From NCBI GenBank assembly GCA_005518205.2, contig RFFC02000036.1, positions 1 through 64,000 on the forward strand: a DNA stretch of 64,000 nt, read 5' to 3'. The notes beneath the pieces are model-generated. The model worked only from the letters and a program-made list of their open reading frames with translations. It searched no databases and was not told the DNA's origin. This DNA comes from Hormoscilla sp. GUM202. Its GTDB lineage: Bacteria > Cyanobacteriota > Cyanobacteriia > Cyanobacteriales > Desertifilaceae. Numbering within the stretch: the stretch's first letter is position 1; each line of letters starts with the position of its first letter. Both the position numbers and the translations under genes were made by a program. Shown here piece after piece: positions 2,584 through 59,142 of this stretch.

Positions 2584-2957
2584 TGTGGCGGAGTGGGAAT
2601 TGCGGATTGGCAAGTATCGAGTGTTATATGATGCTATAATGGAGGATGAACTTCAGCTATGTAAAATATCTACAGTAGGATATAAAGAACGTAACAAGCT
2701 GTATATTAGAGGCGTTTCAGCTATGAAAGTAATTGATGTTTCCTGGAAATCAACAGAACTGCGTGCTCTCTTGGCAGAAGCAAGGGAGAAAAATATAATT
2801 TTGCGAACTGCGTTCATCCTCGCGCTCGATTGATGAGTTTGATGTAGAAATTGAATTGACTCGCCAAAACTCAGAATTAATGGAATTTATAGAGGAAAGG
2901 GCACGGAGTACGAAAACAGTTTCAGCAGCAGAAGCATGTGGGAGATTGGGTTTATAG
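2582..2957 (+). pseudogene. RelE-like toxin end fused to a frameshifted antitoxin
   Basis: The frame first reads the C-terminal half of a RelE/ParE-type toxin (WELRIGKYRVLYD, then KERNKLYIRG) without its N-terminus. It runs on with no stop into MKVIDVSWKSTELRALLAEA, the start of a short antitoxin of a type often found behind RelE toxins. Near 2822-2832 the antitoxin frame shifts; the second part (IDEFDVEIELTRQN to CGRLGL) is in another frame and stops at 2957. The toxin lacks its front, the stop between the two genes is gone and the antitoxin is out of frame, so the module is dead. Its left edge abuts the truncated nuclease, which suggests one deletion joined the two loci. Confidence 0.6.
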
Positions 2958-2972
2958 CGCATTCGGCGCTAG

Positions 2973-3033
2973 TGAGGTACAGCAAGATTGATGACCACTG
3001 ACAGTTTCGAGAAGACGGAGAGATGTACCTCAC
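2973..3033. repeat. small element with 10-bp inverted ends
   Basis: GTGAGGTACA at the left and TGTACCTCAC at the right are perfect inverted repeats about 61 bases apart. The segment lies next to a gene fragment, so it may be a very small insertion. No target duplication was confirmed. Confidence 0.35.
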
Positions 3034-3045
3034 CAGGGTGAAATT

Positions 3046-3105
3046 TGCGGTAATTTGAAATTCTTGGAAGCAGCGATAGTTTTGAATGGTGAGGTCGCGT
3101 GACAT
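3046..3105 (-). pseudogene. possible N-terminus of an OLD/RecF-like ATPase
   Basis: The leftward frame MSRDLTIQNYRCFQEFQI resembles the opening strand of AAA_15/OLD-family ATPases, where LTIxNYRxF precedes the P-loop. After about 20 codons the resemblance ends and no Walker A follows. It may be the tip of a deleted defence-type ATPase. The evidence is short. Confidence 0.3.
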
Positions 3106-3199
3106 TTTACAGCGGCAGTTTTCCGATCTAGAACGATTATAGCATAACCCACTCTAGGTGTTCGTTCCCTGACTCTCCCAGGGAACGAGAAAACAGATT

Positions 3200-4891
3200 T
3201 TAATCTAACTCTTCTTCGCCCACTTCTACAAGTGCTGGGGGTTCGTCTCCAGGGGTCCGCAAGATCTCTACCATCTCTTGAATTTCTGCTGGGGGTGCTG
3301 GCGTCAGGCGCGAGACAACTAAAGTGACGACAAAATTGAGTGCCATCCCCACGGTGCCAATTCCTTCTGCGGAAACTCCAAAAAACCAAGTATCCATCCC
3401 GTAGAATTTTACCCCGATGATGTAAGTTGCGGTGAAAATTAACCCGACTAACATGCCAGCGATCGCCCCTTCCCGGTTAGTACGCTTGTCAAACACGCCT
3501 AAGATAATCACGGGAAAAAAGCTTGCTGCTGCTAAACCAAAGGCAAATGCTACCACTTGGGCGACAAAACCGGGGGGGTTAATTCCAAAATATCCCGCGA
3601 TCGCGATCGCAAACCCGACCATTATTCTTCCTACCATCACCCGTCGGGACTCCGACGCCCCGGGATCGATCATGCGATAATAAAGATCGTGAGCGATCGA
3701 ACTCGATATGACCAAGAGTAACCCCGATGCCGTGGATAACGCTGCTGCCAAACCCCCTGCTGCTACCAAGGCCACGACCCAGGGAGCAAGTTTCGCCACT
3801 TCTGGGGTGGACAGGACGATAATATCGCGATCGATCTCAATTTCGTTTGTGTTTTTATCGGGCGTCAGCTCAATTTTCCCATCGCCGTTTTTATCCTCAA
3901 AGGCCAACAGTCCCGTATTTTCCCACTTCGTGGCCCAGTCTAGCTGACGCACTTCTTCAATTTTATGGTCGTGCAAGCTGTCGATCAGATTGTAGCGGGC
4001 GAAGGCTGCCACTGCCGGTGCTGTAGTATACAAAATCGCAATAAATAGCAGGGCCCAGCCCGCCGAATAACGGGCCGATCGCACGTTAGGCACTGTATAA
4101 AAGCGGACGATGACGTGGGGCAATCCCGCCGTCCCCACCATCAGGGCAATAGTGATAAACAATACATCCAGCATGGACTTATTGGCAAAGGGCTGAGTGT
4201 ATTCTTGGAAACCCAGGTCCAGCTGCACTTGGTTGAGTTTATCGACGATATCGCTGAAAGTGAAGGCTAGCTGGGGGATGGGGTTGCCCGTCAGCAGGAT
4301 GGCGATCGCGATCGCGGGGATCAGGTAAGCAATAATCAGCACGCTGTACTGAGCAACTTGGGTCCAAGTAATACCTTTCATGCCCCCCAGGACTGCGAAA
4401 AAACCCACAATCACCATGCCAATTACGACACCCGTACTGACATCAACTTGCAGAAAGCGGCTAAAAACGATACCGACACCTCGCATCTGTCCCGCTACGT
4501 AGGTGAGGGAGACAAAGATAGCCGCGATCGCAGCGACAATGCGGGCGACATTAGAGTAATAGCGATCGCCGACAAAATCCGGTACGGTATACTTGCCGAA
4601 CTTGCGCAGATAGGGTGCTAAAAGCAAAGCCAGGAGAACATATCCCCCGGTCCAACCCATCAGATAGATAGAACCATCGTAACCCAGGAAGGAGATTAAT
4701 CCAGCCATGGAGATAAAGGAAGCAGCGGACATCCAGTCAGCAGCAGTCGCCGCACCATTAGCGATCGCGGGTACCCCCCGATCGGCCACAAAAAACCCCT
4801 GAGAGTCCCGGACGCGCGATCGCCACCCTATATAAAGATAGAGCATAAACGAAATCGTCACGAATAAAAAAGTCCATACTTCAACAGACAT
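3200..4891 (-). CDS. sodium:solute symporter, VC_2705/acetate-permease type
   Basis: A 563-aa polytopic membrane protein of the sodium:solute symporter family that couples uptake of a small organic acid (acetate or similar) to Na+. About 13 hydrophobic segments are visible. Family signatures include TAADWMSAASFISMAG near residue 50 and the ALSTASGLLLVISSSIAHD stretch in the second half. A hydrophilic insert with an EDKNGDGKIEL motif, which looks like an EF-hand calcium loop, sits near residue 320. The next gene upstream encodes DUF4212, the small subunit that accompanies this subfamily, so the two form a transporter operon. Substrate is inferred from the family only. Confidence 0.85.
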   Translation of the reverse strand: MSVEVWTFLFVTISFMLYLYIGWRSRVRDSQGFFVADRGVPAIANGAATAADWMSAASFISMAGLISFLGYDGSIYLMGWTGGYVLLALLLAPYLRKFGKYTVPDFVGDRYYSNVARIVAAIAAIFVSLTYVAGQMRGVGIVFSRFLQVDVSTGVVIGMVIVGFFAVLGGMKGITWTQVAQYSVLIIAYLIPAIAIAILLTGNPIPQLAFTFSDIVDKLNQVQLDLGFQEYTQPFANKSMLDVLFITIALMVGTAGLPHVIVRFYTVPNVRSARYSAGWALLFIAILYTTAPAVAAFARYNLIDSLHDHKIEEVRQLDWATKWENTGLLAFEDKNGDGKIELTPDKNTNEIEIDRDIIVLSTPEVAKLAPWVVALVAAGGLAAALSTASGLLLVISSSIAHDLYYRMIDPGASESRRVMVGRIMVGFAIAIAGYFGINPPGFVAQVVAFAFGLAAASFFPVIILGVFDKRTNREGAIAGMLVGLIFTATYIIGVKFYGMDTWFFGVSAEGIGTVGMALNFVVTLVVSRLTPAPPAEIQEMVEILRTPGDEPPALVEVGEEELD

Positions 4892-44213: not shown

Positions 44214-44579
44214 TTAAAACTCATCGCTGCTGCCATATTCAGCGGCCATGGCTTCATTATCCCGCTTAGAACCCAATAAATCCAGCCGGTCCACCTTAAT
44301 GATTGGTGCCGAACGCGCCACTCCTGTATTGCGGTCTTGCCATTGGTCAAATTTTAAGGCACCTGTAATACCAATCAAGCTGCCCTTGCGGACATAGTTA
44401 CCAGCTATCTCTGCCGTCCTGCCCCACAACTCCAGGCTAAACCAGTCGGGTTGATCTGTTTTACGGGTTGGGCGATTGACGGCTAGGGTTAGTCTACATT
44501 TTACCGCCCCTGACTCGAAATATTTGACGTCCGGATCTCCTCCCGCGCGCCCTACCAGATGAACAAGATTAAGATTCAT
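44214..44579 (-). CDS. ssb: single-stranded DNA-binding protein
   Basis: A 121-aa OB-fold protein: MNLNLVHLVGRAGGDPDVKY, CRLTLAVNR, WFSLELWGRTAEIAGNYVRKG, and LIGITGALKFDQW. It coats single-stranded DNA in replication and repair. The acidic C-terminal tip that recruits partners reads SSDEF, a variant of the usual DDIPF. Length is typical of cyanobacterial SSB. Confidence 0.9.
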   Translation of the reverse strand: MNLNLVHLVGRAGGDPDVKYFESGAVKCRLTLAVNRPTRKTDQPDWFSLELWGRTAEIAGNYVRKGSLIGITGALKFDQWQDRNTGVARSAPIIKVDRLDLLGSKRDNEAMAAEYGSSDEF

Positions 44580-44680: not shown

Positions 44681-44816
44681 GGGTGTGGTCAAAACCCGTT
44701 GGTATTACTCGCCCGAACCCTAAAGGGTCCGGCTACTCAAACAAAGCCCGCCTGCGCGGGCTATCTTACATGCATCACCAGATGCACCTGGCTATCAACT
44801 ACTTTTGACCACACCA
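44681..44816. mobile_element. MITE with GGGTGTGGTCAAAA ends, copy 1
   Basis: 136 bp with 13-bp inverted ends (GGTGTGGTCAAAA). A 9-bp target duplication GTCGCTGTT flanks it (44672-44680, 44817-44825). The interior contains an inverted CCCTAAAGGGT segment and an AAAGCCCGCCTGCGCGGGCT palindrome shared with 52806 and 62052. A second copy is at 54654-54775. Confidence 0.88.
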
Positions 44817-45121: not shown

Positions 45122-46450
<1,329 letters not shown>

Positions 46451-53512: not shown

Positions 53513-54496
53513 GTGACCCAGACTAAATCCCCGAGCAGAAATAGAACACTGAATTGCTCCATGCAAGAGATTTCCGATCTCAGTATAGAACTTGTTTATC
53601 TGATGTCAGATACATCGCTCAAAACAATTGAAAATAAAATTATTCACCAAGATATTTTCGATGCGGCACCCTATTTGCCGATCGGGTTTGCGGAGTTGCT
53701 AGTGTTGGACCCTCCATACAATCTTTCAAAAAACTACAATGGTTACCTGTTCAAAGAAAAGGAGAAGTCGGAATATCAGGAGTGGTTTGCGGGAGTGGTT
53801 AGGCTTGTCAAACCAATGCTGAAGCCCACAGCAACAGTCTACGTATGCTCTGATTGGAGAACATCTGTATTGATTGCTCCGATACTTGAAAAGGAGTTCC
53901 GCATCCAAAATCGCATCACCTGGGAAAGAGAAAAAGGGAGAGGCGCAAAATCTAACTGGAAAAATAACACTGAAGACATCTGGTTTTGTACGGTCTCCGA
54001 GCAATACCGCTTTAACCTTGATGCGGTAAAGCTCAAGCGAAAGGTAATTGCGCCCTATCGTACAGAAGATGGGCGTCCAAAAGATTGGCAAGCAGAGGCC
54101 GAAGGCAATTTCCGCCTCACCCATCCATCAAATATCTGGACAGATATCACAATTCCCTTTTGGTCTATGCCGGAGAATACCAAGCATCCCACCCAAAAAC
54201 CAGAAAAACTGATTGCTAAGTTAGTGCTGGCAAGTTCTAATCCCGGGGAGATGGTGTTAGATCCATTCTTAGGTAGTGGAACTACTGCGGTAGTTGCTAA
54301 AAAACTTGGCAGGCGCTTTGTGGGCGTGGAAATTAATCAAGAATACTGCTGCTGGGCTTTGAAGCGCCTGGCAATTGCTCAAGAGTATCCGTCTATTCAG
54401 GGATATGCTGACGGCGTGTTTTGGGAGCGAAACACCCTCAGCGCTCAACCAAAAGACAAGAAGCCGAGTGTAGTGCAGATGGAACTGTTTTTATGA
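53513..54496 (+). CDS. type II DNA methyltransferase, beta class (N4-C or N6-A)
   Basis: A 327-aa SAM enzyme. Catalytic motif IV LDPPYNLSKNYNG at about 65-77 comes before motif I LDPFLGSGTTAVVAKKLGRR near 245, the beta-class order. HPTQKPEKL just before motif I is characteristic. It methylates exocyclic amino groups; the DPPY motif favours adenine. Start GTG 53513; later ATGs are possible. Its stop overlaps the nuclease ATG (ATGA), so the pair is a translationally coupled R-M operon. The nuclease is broken, so this may now act as an orphan methyltransferase. Confidence 0.88.
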   Translation: MTQTKSPSRNRTLNCSMQEISDLSIELVYLMSDTSLKTIENKIIHQDIFDAAPYLPIGFAELLVLDPPYNLSKNYNGYLFKEKEKSEYQEWFAGVVRLVKPMLKPTATVYVCSDWRTSVLIAPILEKEFRIQNRITWEREKGRGAKSNWKNNTEDIWFCTVSEQYRFNLDAVKLKRKVIAPYRTEDGRPKDWQAEAEGNFRLTHPSNIWTDITIPFWSMPENTKHPTQKPEKLIAKLVLASSNPGEMVLDPFLGSGTTAVVAKKLGRRFVGVEINQEYCCWALKRLAIAQEYPSIQGYADGVFWERNTLSAQPKDKKPSVVQMELFL

Positions 54497-55292
54497 AATC
54501 CAACTTTTTCTATGGAGGGCACTATCAGGCGGTTGCTGCATCGATCGAAGATTACATTAACTCGGTCCCCGAATTTCTGTCTGCCCAGACTGCCCGCAGC
54601 ACAAGGGCCGCAGGTGATGCAATTGAAGGACTCATAGCCGATCGGTTCGATACGGGTGTGGTCAAAAGTAGTTGCTCCCGGGATCCCCCCCAAACCCCCC
54701 CTTAAAAAGGGGGGGTTTGGGGGGATCCGGCGACAGGGATGGCTAAGGAACTATCAACTGTTTTTGACCACACCCGTTCGATACGTTCCTAGGAGATTGG
54801 TGCCAAGAGTATTCAGCCAATTTTGCGCGTCGGGCAATGGCAGATGTTGCATTCAGGGATAAGGAAGATTTCTACTGCGTTGTCGATGTCAAGACCCACC
54901 GCGAAGATACAAAGTTCAATATGCCGAATCTTACATCTGTAGAACGGATATCTAGATTCTATGAGGACGATAAGAATATATTCGCGTTGATAATGGTCAA
55001 GTACGTGCTGGAAGGAAATCGAGTTACGGCAACAGAGGTCAGTTTCTGCCCAATTGAGTTTCTCGACTGGGATTGCCTCACCGTAGGTGCCCTTGGATGG
55101 GGACAGATTCAAATTGCGAATTCCAATCGTATCTTGGTGAATCAGGGGTACTCCAGAAAGCAGTGGATGTTGTCGCTCTGTGAGACGATGTTCGACTTTT
55201 ATCCGAAGGAAATATTGAAGATTCAAGAGAGAATCGAACGCTTCCAGGAAGTGAAGTCATTCTGGGAGAGCAAGCAAGATATTTGGGTCTAA
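54493..55292 (+). pseudogene. type II restriction endonuclease split by a MITE
   Basis: The front (54 codons, MKSNFFYGGHYQAVAASIED to ADRFDT) and the back (FLGDWCQEYSANFARRA on to WESKQDIWV) are in the same rebuilt frame once the 122-bp MITE and one 9-bp target copy are removed, giving about 222 aa. The back has a PD-(D/E)XK-like core: FRDKEDFYCVVDVKTHRED with Asp and Asp-Val-Lys. GALGWGQIQIANSN and YPKEILKIQERIERF follow. The frame is otherwise undamaged, so the insertion is recent. Recognition site unknown. Confidence 0.8.
54654..54775. mobile_element. MITE with GGGTGTGGTCAAAA ends, copy 2
   Basis: 122 bp with inverted ends GGGTGTGGTCAAAA and TTTTGACCACACCC. A 9-bp target duplication GTTCGATAC flanks it (54645-54653, 54776-54784). 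Its interior is a long palindrome of GGATCC and CCCCCAAACCCCCC with its complement. Same family as 44681-44816. Confidence 0.9.
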
Positions 55293-55639: not shown

Positions 55640-57700
55640 CTAAGTTCTATTTACAGAGAAAGCATAATTTCCATCGGGAAATCTAATGACAGGAACCCAG
55701 AAAGGTACTCCATCCCATCCTCGATTAATTCTATTTGGCAAATAATCTACTTTACCATTAAATTTAAATAAAAATAAGGCAAGGCAGTTTGGTTGTATGT
55801 TGAACCTAGAAGGGTTAAAACCACCAGGTAATACACTACTAATTCCTCTATAGTCTCTAGATTGATCTTTTTTACGATCTGAGCTACGAGTTACAACCAT
55901 TACTATCGCTTGATTGCTGTATTCTGGAATATTTCCTATTGACGATACAGCTTGTCTAATGAGATCGTCTTTCCAGGTTCCTCTAGATTCAGGAGAAGCA
56001 AATTTAAAATCTAGAAGATGTAGTAAGTCTTCAAAAGTTACAGAATATGGTGTCTGTTCATCAAAGGTAAAGAGGAGATTGTCAATCATTTCTGTCTGAT
56101 TTCCTAAAATATCGGGAGAAGAAATAGGAAGAGATGGAAAATAACTTTGCCCACCTAAATAAGTTACGATATCGACTGTGCTATCATCCAGAACGTTTCT
56201 TCTTGTAGGTCTAATATTCCTAGCCATCAATGGGATTACAGGAATTGCCTCATGGGAAACTCTACATTTTTCCCTCATTGCATTGTCTGTCCTGTGGATA
56301 TTACAAAATCTAATGCCAAGATGTTGAGGTAGATAAATGCGGATAGCAGGTAGCTCTGCATGTCTATAGCCATACATTCGTGCGTGCTGTAGTACGGTAT
56401 CAATTTGAGGATAAAGAGCATCCCTACCGTAATAAGTAACGAGCAAATTTTTGATCGTCACACCTCGACCTATTTTAGTTCCTCCAATGTACAGAGTATG
56501 CCGTCGTGATGGGTTAGGACTTACCCCTGCCCCTGTTCTTGCATTAATTTCAATAACTTCAGTGGAAGCAATCGCTCTCGCTGCTTCTGCAATTATCTCT
56601 TCAAATGCTGGAATATTTTCAAAAGTACGCTGCATGTCAGCATAAGCTTCTTCCAAACCTTCTCTAAAATTTTGAGATATTGAGTGTATAGAATTTCTAT
56701 TCGCTATTGTCAGTTCTACAGCTAGCAAATTCCTATACTCATCAACTAAACGAGCAGCCAATAAGTGATTGGCCTGTCTAAAGCTAGTGTGCAGCAAATA
56801 AGTATAGTTTTTAGTGCTACCCAAAAGCCGAAGAATTGCCGCTCCTACAAAAAATGCAAGTAAAGACCGAGCTAGAGTATCGGGAATAATATCACTATCT
56901 TGTAGGCTTGTGACATCAATTAATGGAACTACACGCACATGATTGGAGGTAGTAAAGTCTTCATCAGCAAAGAAATAATTCCCACCTACATACCCTGTTC
57001 CTGGAGTTGTAGGTACTACAAAATTAGGTCTAAAAGGATTGTCTCTATTTTGTAAGAGAAGCGCTTGAGGGGTTGCTGTTGTTTGTAGATATGCATAAGA
57101 AGCTAAAGTTTGTCTGAGTGTTGCAATTGCCTGATTTACGGAACTTGCAGGACGATTAGGATCGTTTATATTCGTATCTAGACTTGCTTGATCGGCCTCA
57201 TCATCTATAATCATGGTAGTCTGACTGTGCCAATATAATCGTCGAGTTAAATCAGTAACTTTCCTTAAAATTTTCGCATTTTTTGAGGAAACTAACGCTA
57301 GAGGCATAAATGAATTTGAGCCAGCATAGTTTTGGAAGTCCCTCTTTCCTAACACTTGAAAACCGTCTAGAGATCGTTGTATACGATCGAGAGTTTGATC
57401 ATAAATGTCCTTTAGATCGGAGGTCATTATGATAAAGTTTCGATAGCCATTATCTGCTGCTAAAGCAAGTGTTGTAATAATGACAGCCGTTTTCCCACTT
57501 TGAATATGCCCATAAATTAATCCCTGGGTTGAATTTGCTTGACCAGGGCTCGTACAGCGTTGAAGAATATCAGTTGCATCATGCAGTATGTTATCAAAAT
57601 CTTGGAAAGAAATATTTTCTTCCCTCTGCAAATATTCCCGTAAACTTGCGATATTGTTGCCTGGATTTGTTTTATTCATGACCAAAAACTGCAAAATCAA
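55640..57700 (-). CDS. Z1-domain ATPase (defence-associated)
   Basis: A 686-aa protein with a P-loop helicase-like N-terminal half: Walker A GHIQSGKTAVI at about 64-74, Walker B MIIDDEADQASLD near 165, motif III-like YLQTTATPQALLL near 208. The Z1 domain follows, with LYIGGTKIGRGVTIKNLLVTYYGR near 400. Z1 proteins are encoded with cytosine methyltransferases in restriction-like systems, often with MutL/MORC-type ATPases and PD-(D/E)XK nucleases (Iyer and colleagues' work on MORC origins). Here the cytosine methyltransferase gene is 45 bases upstream on the same strand. No MORC or nuclease partner is visible. ATG 57679 is an alternative start. Confidence 0.85.
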   Translation of the reverse strand: MILQFLVMNKTNPGNNIASLREYLQREENISFQDFDNILHDATDILQRCTSPGQANSTQGLIYGHIQSGKTAVIITTLALAADNGYRNFIIMTSDLKDIYDQTLDRIQRSLDGFQVLGKRDFQNYAGSNSFMPLALVSSKNAKILRKVTDLTRRLYWHSQTTMIIDDEADQASLDTNINDPNRPASSVNQAIATLRQTLASYAYLQTTATPQALLLQNRDNPFRPNFVVPTTPGTGYVGGNYFFADEDFTTSNHVRVVPLIDVTSLQDSDIIPDTLARSLLAFFVGAAILRLLGSTKNYTYLLHTSFRQANHLLAARLVDEYRNLLAVELTIANRNSIHSISQNFREGLEEAYADMQRTFENIPAFEEIIAEAARAIASTEVIEINARTGAGVSPNPSRRHTLYIGGTKIGRGVTIKNLLVTYYGRDALYPQIDTVLQHARMYGYRHAELPAIRIYLPQHLGIRFCNIHRTDNAMREKCRVSHEAIPVIPLMARNIRPTRRNVLDDSTVDIVTYLGGQSYFPSLPISSPDILGNQTEMIDNLLFTFDEQTPYSVTFEDLLHLLDFKFASPESRGTWKDDLIRQAVSSIGNIPEYSNQAIVMVVTRSSDRKKDQSRDYRGISSVLPGGFNPSRFNIQPNCLALFLFKFNGKVDYLPNRINRGWDGVPFWVPVIRFPDGNYAFSVNRT

Positions 57701-57744
57701 AAAAATCTGTTGTAAGCACCATAAAACACAATCTATATCTGTAG

Positions 57745-59142
57745 TTATAGCTTCAGAATATATTCTGCTATAGCTAGTGTTAAAAGAAAGCTAATTGCAT
57801 TGGCTAATTGCTGTTGTTTATGCATAATTCCACCTGGCAAAGAGTCATCTAAATTGCCGCAAAAAGTAAACCAATCGGGAAGTGACTGTAATCGAGCGGC
57901 TTCACGTAAAGACAAGCCCCTATCTTGTTCAGGATGAACTATCATGCTTTTTCGATAGTTTCCGATGGTAATAGAAGGCTCACACAACTTTAATCTTCTA
58001 TAAATATTGCTATGTGTTCTTGATATATCTCGGTAATTATTAATCATGTGCTGAATATTTTGCCAGTTACCACCTTGGGGTATATTTTTGTATCTGTTTA
58101 TTACATAATCTGCTTGGCGTGAAACTATATGTCCCTCGATTACGTCTCTAGGGGCCATTTCACGCATCCGCATTAAAAATGGATTTGCCTTTAATTTCTC
58201 TTCGTTTGGTTCTTGATATTTCTGAATTAGCCTACTTTCACCATTAGCGACTTCTGGTAAATCACAAATAGCCTCATCTACTGTTACATAATGTCTCTTA
58301 CCTAAAAATCCATGTGTTGGCTTTGGAAATGCACCCCATTCATCAAAGTCAGCAACGCTATAACCTAGACTTTTATGCAAGCCAAGCAGAAAGAAACGGT
58401 TTCTATGTTGTGGTACGCCATACCAAGCTGCATCCACGACCGCTGGGAAAAGAACATATCCAGCATCAATCATTTTTTGAGAGACATAATCCACCACGCC
58501 TATATCTTTTGCCCTTCTTTTGCTTGATTTCGGTGTCCAAAGTATTCCCTGTACGTTTTCCAAAAGAATAACTTTAGGCTCTAGTTCTATAGCGCATTTC
58601 ACAAAAATATCCACAAGTTTATTGTAGGGATTATCTGGACTCCAAGAATTTCTATTTGACTGTGAAAACCCCTGGCATGGAGGACCACCGATTAACAGAT
58701 CAACTCCCCCTTCTCGATCTACTACGTTTTTAATAATGTCTCGGCCATTTTGAGATTTCAAATCAATTGGAGAGAATTCTTTAGGACAGCAATCATTAGC
58801 TCGATTTTTTGCGTTTTCCTCAAAAAACTTATGGTTTTTTTCTAGGCTTTTAACATAAATTGGATTTATTTCGGCTGCACCAATCACCCGGAAACTTTTT
58901 TTTGAGTTGCTGGCCATTAAAAATCCCGTGCTCATTCCACCTGCGCCTGCAAACAGGTCAATGACTCGCAACTCATTGCGAGACTGAGTAAGACTGCCTA
59001 GTAAATTATTTTCTTTTAATAAATACTCAGAACCTTCCCTCTGCGCCAAAGATAAATTGAGCAGCTTATCCTGCTCATCGGATATCTTTATATTAGCTCT
59101 GTAACGAAGCCTTGAACCTGGACGACAAGCTGGTTTACGCAT
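57745..59142 (-). CDS. DNA (cytosine-5) methyltransferase of a Z1 system
   Basis: A 465-aa C5 methyltransferase. Motif I VIDLFAGAGGMSTGF near 60-74, catalytic GGPPCQGFSQSNRNSW with Cys156, ENVQG, and QHRNRFFLLG. Motif X is atypical: QQLANAISFLLTLAIAEYI in place of GNAVP. A 55-residue N-terminal extension precedes motif I. It forms a leftward operon with the Z1 ATPase. AT-rich composition differs from the housekeeping genes, which supports acquisition as a defence module. Confidence 0.9.
   Translation of the reverse strand: MRKPACRPGSRLRYRANIKISDEQDKLLNLSLAQREGSEYLLKENNLLGSLTQSRNELRVIDLFAGAGGMSTGFLMASNSKKSFRVIGAAEINPIYVKSLEKNHKFFEENAKNRANDCCPKEFSPIDLKSQNGRDIIKNVVDREGGVDLLIGGPPCQGFSQSNRNSWSPDNPYNKLVDIFVKCAIELEPKVILLENVQGILWTPKSSKRRAKDIGVVDYVSQKMIDAGYVLFPAVVDAAWYGVPQHRNRFFLLGLHKSLGYSVADFDEWGAFPKPTHGFLGKRHYVTVDEAICDLPEVANGESRLIQKYQEPNEEKLKANPFLMRMREMAPRDVIEGHIVSRQADYVINRYKNIPQGGNWQNIQHMINNYRDISRTHSNIYRRLKLCEPSITIGNYRKSMIVHPEQDRGLSLREAARLQSLPDWFTFCGNLDDSLPGGIMHKQQQLANAISFLLTLAIAEYILKL

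What the first reader, a model, noticed from the sequence alone, without database searches (positions are those of the whole stretch)
54493..55292. Restriction nuclease gene inactivated by a MITE next to an intact methyltransferase
The 122-bp MITE with 9-bp duplication GTTCGATAC sits in the nuclease frame; removing it restores a 222-aa nuclease with a DVK core. The overlapping methyltransferase gene is intact. Loss of the nuclease with retention of the methyltransferase is the safe route for an R-M system to decay, and here the causative event is visible.
Basis: seen in the sequence. Interest (0 to 1): 0.65.

Follow-up and report, generated by a model that had tools for sequence, protein, structure and literature searches.

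The report
Restriction nuclease gene broken by MITE
In this cyanobacterium (apparently genus Hormoscilla) a small transposon has landed inside a DNA-cutting defence gene and broken it, while the partner gene that marks the cell's own DNA is intact; two near-identical relatives still carry the unbroken gene, so the event is directly visible, but this kind of decay is already well known.

Summary
The finding is confirmed. A 122-bp MITE (54654-54775), flanked by a perfect 9-bp duplication GTTCGATAC, splits a 222-aa type II restriction nuclease gene (54493-55292) at codon 54. The upstream, overlapping N6-adenine-type methyltransferase (53513-54496) is open and conserved. The MITE is the only visible lesion in the frame. 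Its family is abundant in this genome, mostly makes 9-bp duplications, and shares its ends with a 1.94-kb element carrying an ISKra4-type transposase. The nuclease is predicted to have the SwaI/HincII/EcoRV PD-(D/E)xK fold. So this is a very clean case of a known route: nuclease lost, methyltransferase kept. Enzyme activity and target site are untested.

The parts
53513..54496 (+). Intact DNA methyltransferase (327 aa, GTG start), N6_N4_Mtase family, N6-adenine-type (beta class)
   Evidence: PF01555 E 2e-45; PDB relatives 8urk, M.MboIIA, DpnA, CcrM, M.RsrI; open frame, 98% identical protein in Hormoscilla L041
54493..54653 (+). 5' part of the nuclease gene (codons 1-53 plus 2 bases), ending in the first TSD copy
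   Evidence: intact in L041/L047
54645..54653 (+). Target-site duplication, left copy GTTCGATAC
   Evidence: single copy in L041 and L047
54654..54775 (.). MITE, 122 bp, TIR GGGTGTGGTCAAAA, sharing its ends with an ISKra4-type element
54776..54784 (+). Target-site duplication, right copy GTTCGATAC
54785..55292 (+). 3' part of the nuclease gene (rest of codon 54 to stop), holding the catalytic core D74-x13-D88-x-K90 (rejoined numbering)
   Evidence: longest ORF left starts at 54837 (Met72) with no clear ribosome site

Best explanation
This is a type II restriction-modification pair (methyltransferase then nuclease, overlapping ATGA) whose nuclease gene was recently knocked out by insertion of a non-autonomous 122-bp transposon (MITE), most likely mobilised by an ISKra4-superfamily transposase of the same genome. 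Transposition made a 9-bp duplication at codon 54, inside a long N-terminal helix and ahead of all catalytic residues, so translation stops after 70 aa and no full nuclease is made. The methyltransferase, upstream and in its own frame, is untouched and probably still methylates the genome. Methylation without the nuclease is harmless, whereas the nuclease without methylation would cut the cell's own DNA, so this is the tolerated order of decay. Shown: insertion, duplication, empty site, intact homologues, intact methyltransferase frame, MITE family with a matching transposase-bearing element. Inferred: mobilisation by that transposase, loss of cutting, continued methylation, former activity of the nuclease.
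For: Empty site with a single GTTCGATAC and an intact 222-aa frame in two congeneric genomes at 96-98% flanking DNA identity (L041 Hormoscilla sp. GM7CHS1pb, L047 Hormoscilla sp. SP12CHS1). Family: 174+173 TIRs, 9-bp TSDs, full element C10:73082-75024 with TSD ATCGCCCTG, the same first 21 bp, and a transposase matching NF033572 ISKra4. Nuclease fold: AlphaFold model of L047 (identical protein) pLDDT 91.7; VIA Z 17.0 to R.SwaI, 12.6 to HincII; Foldseek E 7e-7 to HincII. Conserved M-R gene pair with both frames intact in 75 of 80 loci. No other nuclease copy in the genome.
Against: No activity data for either protein. The nearest other MITE copy is only 85-86% identical, so the donor copy is not seen although the flanks say the insertion is recent. 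The C-terminal 151-aa ORF keeps the catalytic residues, so residual activity is not formally excluded. The assembly is a draft; misassembly is unlikely because no identical MITE copy exists to have been pasted in.
Confidence: 0.93

Rival explanations
1. The insertion is reversible or the gene still works: precise excision between the 9-bp repeats, or translation of the 151-aa C-terminal fragment, leaves some cells with nuclease.
For: The TSD is perfect and the rest of the frame carries no amino-acid change against L047, so precise loss of MITE plus one TSD would restore it; catalytic residues D74, D88 and K90 lie in the downstream ORF.
Against: The fragment lacks residues 1-71, including the invariant S36, R38, G41, D42 and F67-R70 and the N-terminal helices of the fold; no evident ribosome site before Met72. 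No evidence of mixed alleles is available.
Confidence: 0.05
2. The MITE in the nuclease is an assembly or sequencing artefact.
For: Draft assembly of 70 contigs with a very repetitive MITE family.
Against: Perfect 9-bp TSD inside a 72-kb contig, copy unique in sequence (next best 85%), and an independent analogous case in G241.
Confidence: 0.02
3. The loss was favoured because the methyltransferase has acquired another role (domestication), rather than tolerated drift. This adds to, and does not replace, the MITE event.
For: Nuclease-less relatives recur on the methyltransferase tree (10 label changes; at least 6 forced by starred branches) and in one nuclease-less genus the gene evolves with dN/dS about 0.1 at dS up to 0.8.
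Against: In the window genome the event is too recent to test; the tree cannot tell loss from gain; further methyltransferase copies in the same genus have decayed.
Confidence: 0.3

Closest known systems
Orphan methyltransferases left by degraded R-M systems (Seshasayee et al. 2012, as summarised in PMC6471742)
   Same: Methyltransferase kept, neighbouring nuclease degraded
   Different: Here the single causative insertion and the empty site in congeners are both visible, and the nuclease is otherwise unmutated
MITE-made pseudogenes in cyanobacteria, e.g. Anabaena sp. 90 (PMC3542288: 15 MITEs within disrupted ORFs; 13 R-M genes are pseudogenes)
   Same: Small MITEs interrupt chromosomal genes in a MITE-rich cyanobacterium
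   Different: Anabaena 90 MITEs were called type II (no matching IS); this MITE has a matching transposase-bearing element. The passages read there do not link a MITE to a specific R-M gene
R.SwaI (5tgx/5tgq) and HincII (1kc6/1tw8)
   Same: Predicted PD-(D/E)xK nuclease fold over about 185 residues; D-x-K motif aligned with the HincII DVKT motif
   Different: 10-20% identity; below the Pfam HincII cut-off; recognition site unknown
ISKra4 / ISMich2 (p-MULT 4) insertion sequences (PMC3942029)
   Same: Transposase match, 8-9-bp duplications, present in cyanobacteria
   Different: The inserted element is non-autonomous, 122 bp; the putative partner's transposase lies in two frames

Membership tests
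MITE of the ISKra4 superfamily | Short, no ORF of its own, terminal inverted repeats | tested here: met
   122 bp, 14-bp perfect TIR
MITE of the ISKra4 superfamily | Fixed-length target duplication (8-9 bp) | tested here: met
   9 bp here; 15 of 30 TIR pairings listed have exact 9 bp, two more 8 bp
MITE of the ISKra4 superfamily | Shares ends with an element coding an ISKra4-type transposase | tested here: met
   First 21 bp identical with C10:73082-75024; NF033572 E 4.6e-30, though under its curated cut-off (105 vs 205 bits)
Type II restriction-modification system | Adjacent methyltransferase and nuclease genes conserved as a pair | tested here: met
   75 of 80 fetched loci with both frames intact and adjacent; pair in L031, L033, L034
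Type II restriction-modification system | Nuclease with PD-(D/E)xK core | tested here: met
   Invariant D74, D88, K90 in 44 sequences; model matches SwaI, HincII, EcoRV
Type II restriction-modification system | Both enzymes act on the same DNA sequence | not testable with these tools
   No biochemical data; palindrome-avoidance counts gave no motif tied to this system
HincII family (PF09226) | Score above the Pfam gathering cut-off | tested here: not met
   13.3 bits vs 23.7; 23 of 44 members hit PF09226 weakly, best E 1e-4
Beta-class N6-adenine methyltransferase | N6_N4_Mtase domain with the DPPY motif before the SAM motif | tested here: met
   PF01555 E 2.3e-45; DPPYN then DPFLGSGTT in sequence

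The most novel reading that the evidence does not exclude
This methyltransferase family is repeatedly freed from its nuclease (by MITEs in two cyanobacterial lineages, by deletion or erosion in others) and is then retained under selection as a solitary, possibly regulatory, methyltransferase; the Hormoscilla trio would show the first step of that path with nuclease-positive and nuclease-negative states in near-identical genomes.
Probability: 0.35. Interest if true: 0.5.

Novelty: new member of a known kind. Interest (0 to 1): 0.36.

Why it matters
It gives a clean natural before/after pair for R-M decay: the same locus with and without nuclease in genomes a few percent apart, with the causative insertion visible. 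That makes the transition from R-M methyltransferase to solitary methyltransferase testable by methylome comparison. It also describes a widespread nuclease family (163 relatives found in species genomes) that no Pfam model covers above its cut-off.

Tried and rejected
Recognition site: the weak HincII match suggested GTYRAC-like sites. Palindrome counts in 464 kb of this genome and 400 kb of G386 show strong avoidance of GTCGAC, ACGCGT, CGTACG, TTCGAA and GTGCAC, and GTCGAC occurs 3 times in 6.9 Mb, but it is just as rare in cyanobacteria without this nuclease (G008, G213) and not specially avoided in 76 pooled loci from other phyla; so no assignment. 8urk/9c3s as M.BceJIV (GTWWAC) is memory only; the paper was not held. 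Plasmid collection: no nuclease relative. PDB sequence search with the nuclease: nothing by phmmer, only HincII at E 0.07 by profile. A different nuclease beside the solitary methyltransferases was looked for in downstream ORFs; none recurred clearly.

Full report
Observation. The nuclease frame opens at ATG 54493, overlapping the stop of the methyltransferase (53513-54496). It is interrupted by a 122-bp element, 54654-54775, with 14-bp perfect inverted ends (GGGTGTGGTCAAAA), flanked by GTTCGATAC on both sides. Taking out the element and one repeat yields 222 codons without a stop. As it stands, the frame ends after 70 aa, and the longest remaining 3' ORF starts at Met72 (151 aa, 54837-55292).

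The empty site exists. Two public MAGs, Hormoscilla sp. GM7CHS1pb (L041, JACONN010000006.1) and SP12CHS1 (L047, JACOMV010000168.1), align on both sides of the insertion at 96-98% DNA identity and carry a single GTTCGATAC. The rejoined window protein is identical to that of L047 and differs from L041 by one residue; all other codon differences in the nuclease are silent (5 and 8). The MITE is therefore the only visible lesion and is recent.

The MITE family. The terminal repeat occurs 174+173 times with at most one mismatch, against 4+6 for the reversed control. Of 30 TIR pairings listed, some of them pairings of unrelated ends, 15 have an exact 9-bp duplication and two an 8-bp one. A 1943-bp element (C10:73082-75024, duplication ATCGCCCTG) has the same first 21 bp and an ORF matching the ISKra4 transposase model, with the rest of the transposase in a different frame. 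Published members of this superfamily make 8-9-bp duplications, and the ISMich2 group is described with a frameshift (PMC3942029); whether this copy uses a programmed shift or is mutated was not settled. No copy closer than 85-86% to the inserted MITE was found in this genome or in either congener: the donor is unseen. The same fact argues against a misassembly.

The nuclease. Sequence searches give only weak HincII similarity. An AlphaFold model of the intact L047 protein, using 44 sequences from fetched loci (A2), has pLDDT 91.7. Its best solved matches are R.SwaI (Z 17.0, 187 residues, 3.5 A), HincII (Z 12.6) and EcoRV (Z about 11.9). Invariant D74, D88 and K90 fit the PD-(D/E)xK core. The insertion at codon 54 lies in helix 37-59, upstream of all of these. 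I treat it as a type II restriction nuclease of the SwaI/HincII/EcoRV-like branch, not as a member of the HincII Pfam family.

The methyltransferase. It is open, with DPPYN and DPFLGSGTT, and related to beta-class adenine methyltransferases. Between Hormoscilla genomes dN/dS is about 0.15-0.18.

How general is it? Of 80 fetched loci with this nuclease, 75 have both genes intact. Two have a broken nuclease frame with an intact methyltransferase (L059, L116), two methyltransferases are cut by contig ends (L048, L100), and in L107 the methyltransferase frame is interrupted beside an intact nuclease; single lesions in MAGs may be sequencing errors. In G241, a genome of the same class, the same nuclease is split by two other MITE-like elements of 99 and 104 bp, each at a TA. 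Their families have 55 and 44 matches in that genome, and leaving both out gives a full open frame, beside an intact 339-aa methyltransferase. In G089 a heavily mutated 3' part of the nuclease remains without the methyltransferase. In G388 a conserved 15-residue stretch of the nuclease is all that remains after an intact methyltransferase (weak, E 0.017 in a small set). Methyltransferase relatives without a nuclease are scattered over the tree: 10 changes, at least 6 forced by starred branches, with the caveat that a tree does not distinguish loss from gain. In the nuclease-less genus g3, dN/dS is 0.10-0.13 at dS up to 0.8. In Hormoscilla itself a second copy of the pair has decayed: in the window's genome (C44) the methyltransferase is internally deleted and the nuclease gone; in G386 there is that remnant plus a truncated methyltransferase.

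Known or new. Orphan methyltransferases beside degraded nucleases are established (Seshasayee et al. 2012, cited in PMC6471742), and MITE-made pseudogenes are known in cyanobacteria (PMC3542288). This is a new, very well resolved instance. The independent MITE knockouts of one nuclease family in two lineages are a modest addition; given the MITE load of both genomes they need no special targeting.

Limits. No activity, methylation or expression data; the target site was not found despite palindrome counts; most genomes used are drafts or MAGs.

Noticed in passing
window 45140-46450 (+): In-frame fusion of the first ~195 aa of MreB to most of MreC; both congeners (G386, G387) and G213 have separate mreB and mreC, so this genome seems to have an internal deletion (or assembly fault) joining the two cell-shape genes. 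Gene names from my reading of the protein sequence.
   Followed up: partly
window 44681-44816: Second member of the same MITE family (136 bp, 9-bp duplication GTCGCTGTT), between an ssb-like gene (44214-44579, -) and the mreB/mreC fusion.
   Followed up: partly
window 55640-59142 (-): Convergent neighbouring system: Z1-domain ATPase (686 aa, PADLOC 'Helicase_II', E 3e-92) with a C5-cytosine methyltransferase (465 aa).
   Followed up: no
L139 (G000:C44) 2700-3750 (-) and L190 (G386:C2): Decayed second copies of this R-M pair: methyltransferase internally deleted or truncated, nuclease gone after its first codons.
   Followed up: partly
L035 (G241) 1401-1499 and 1698-1801: Two different TA-flanked MITEs in the orthologous nuclease; the second family has about 30 copies at 98-100% identity, a recent burst.
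   Followed up: yes
whole genome G000: GTCGAC occurs only 3 times in 6.9 Mb (its reversal CAGCTG 1722 times); similar rarity in other cyanobacteria, cause not established.
   Followed up: partly
L107: Interrupted methyltransferase frame beside an intact nuclease, the opposite of the expected order; may be a sequencing error in a MAG.
   Followed up: no
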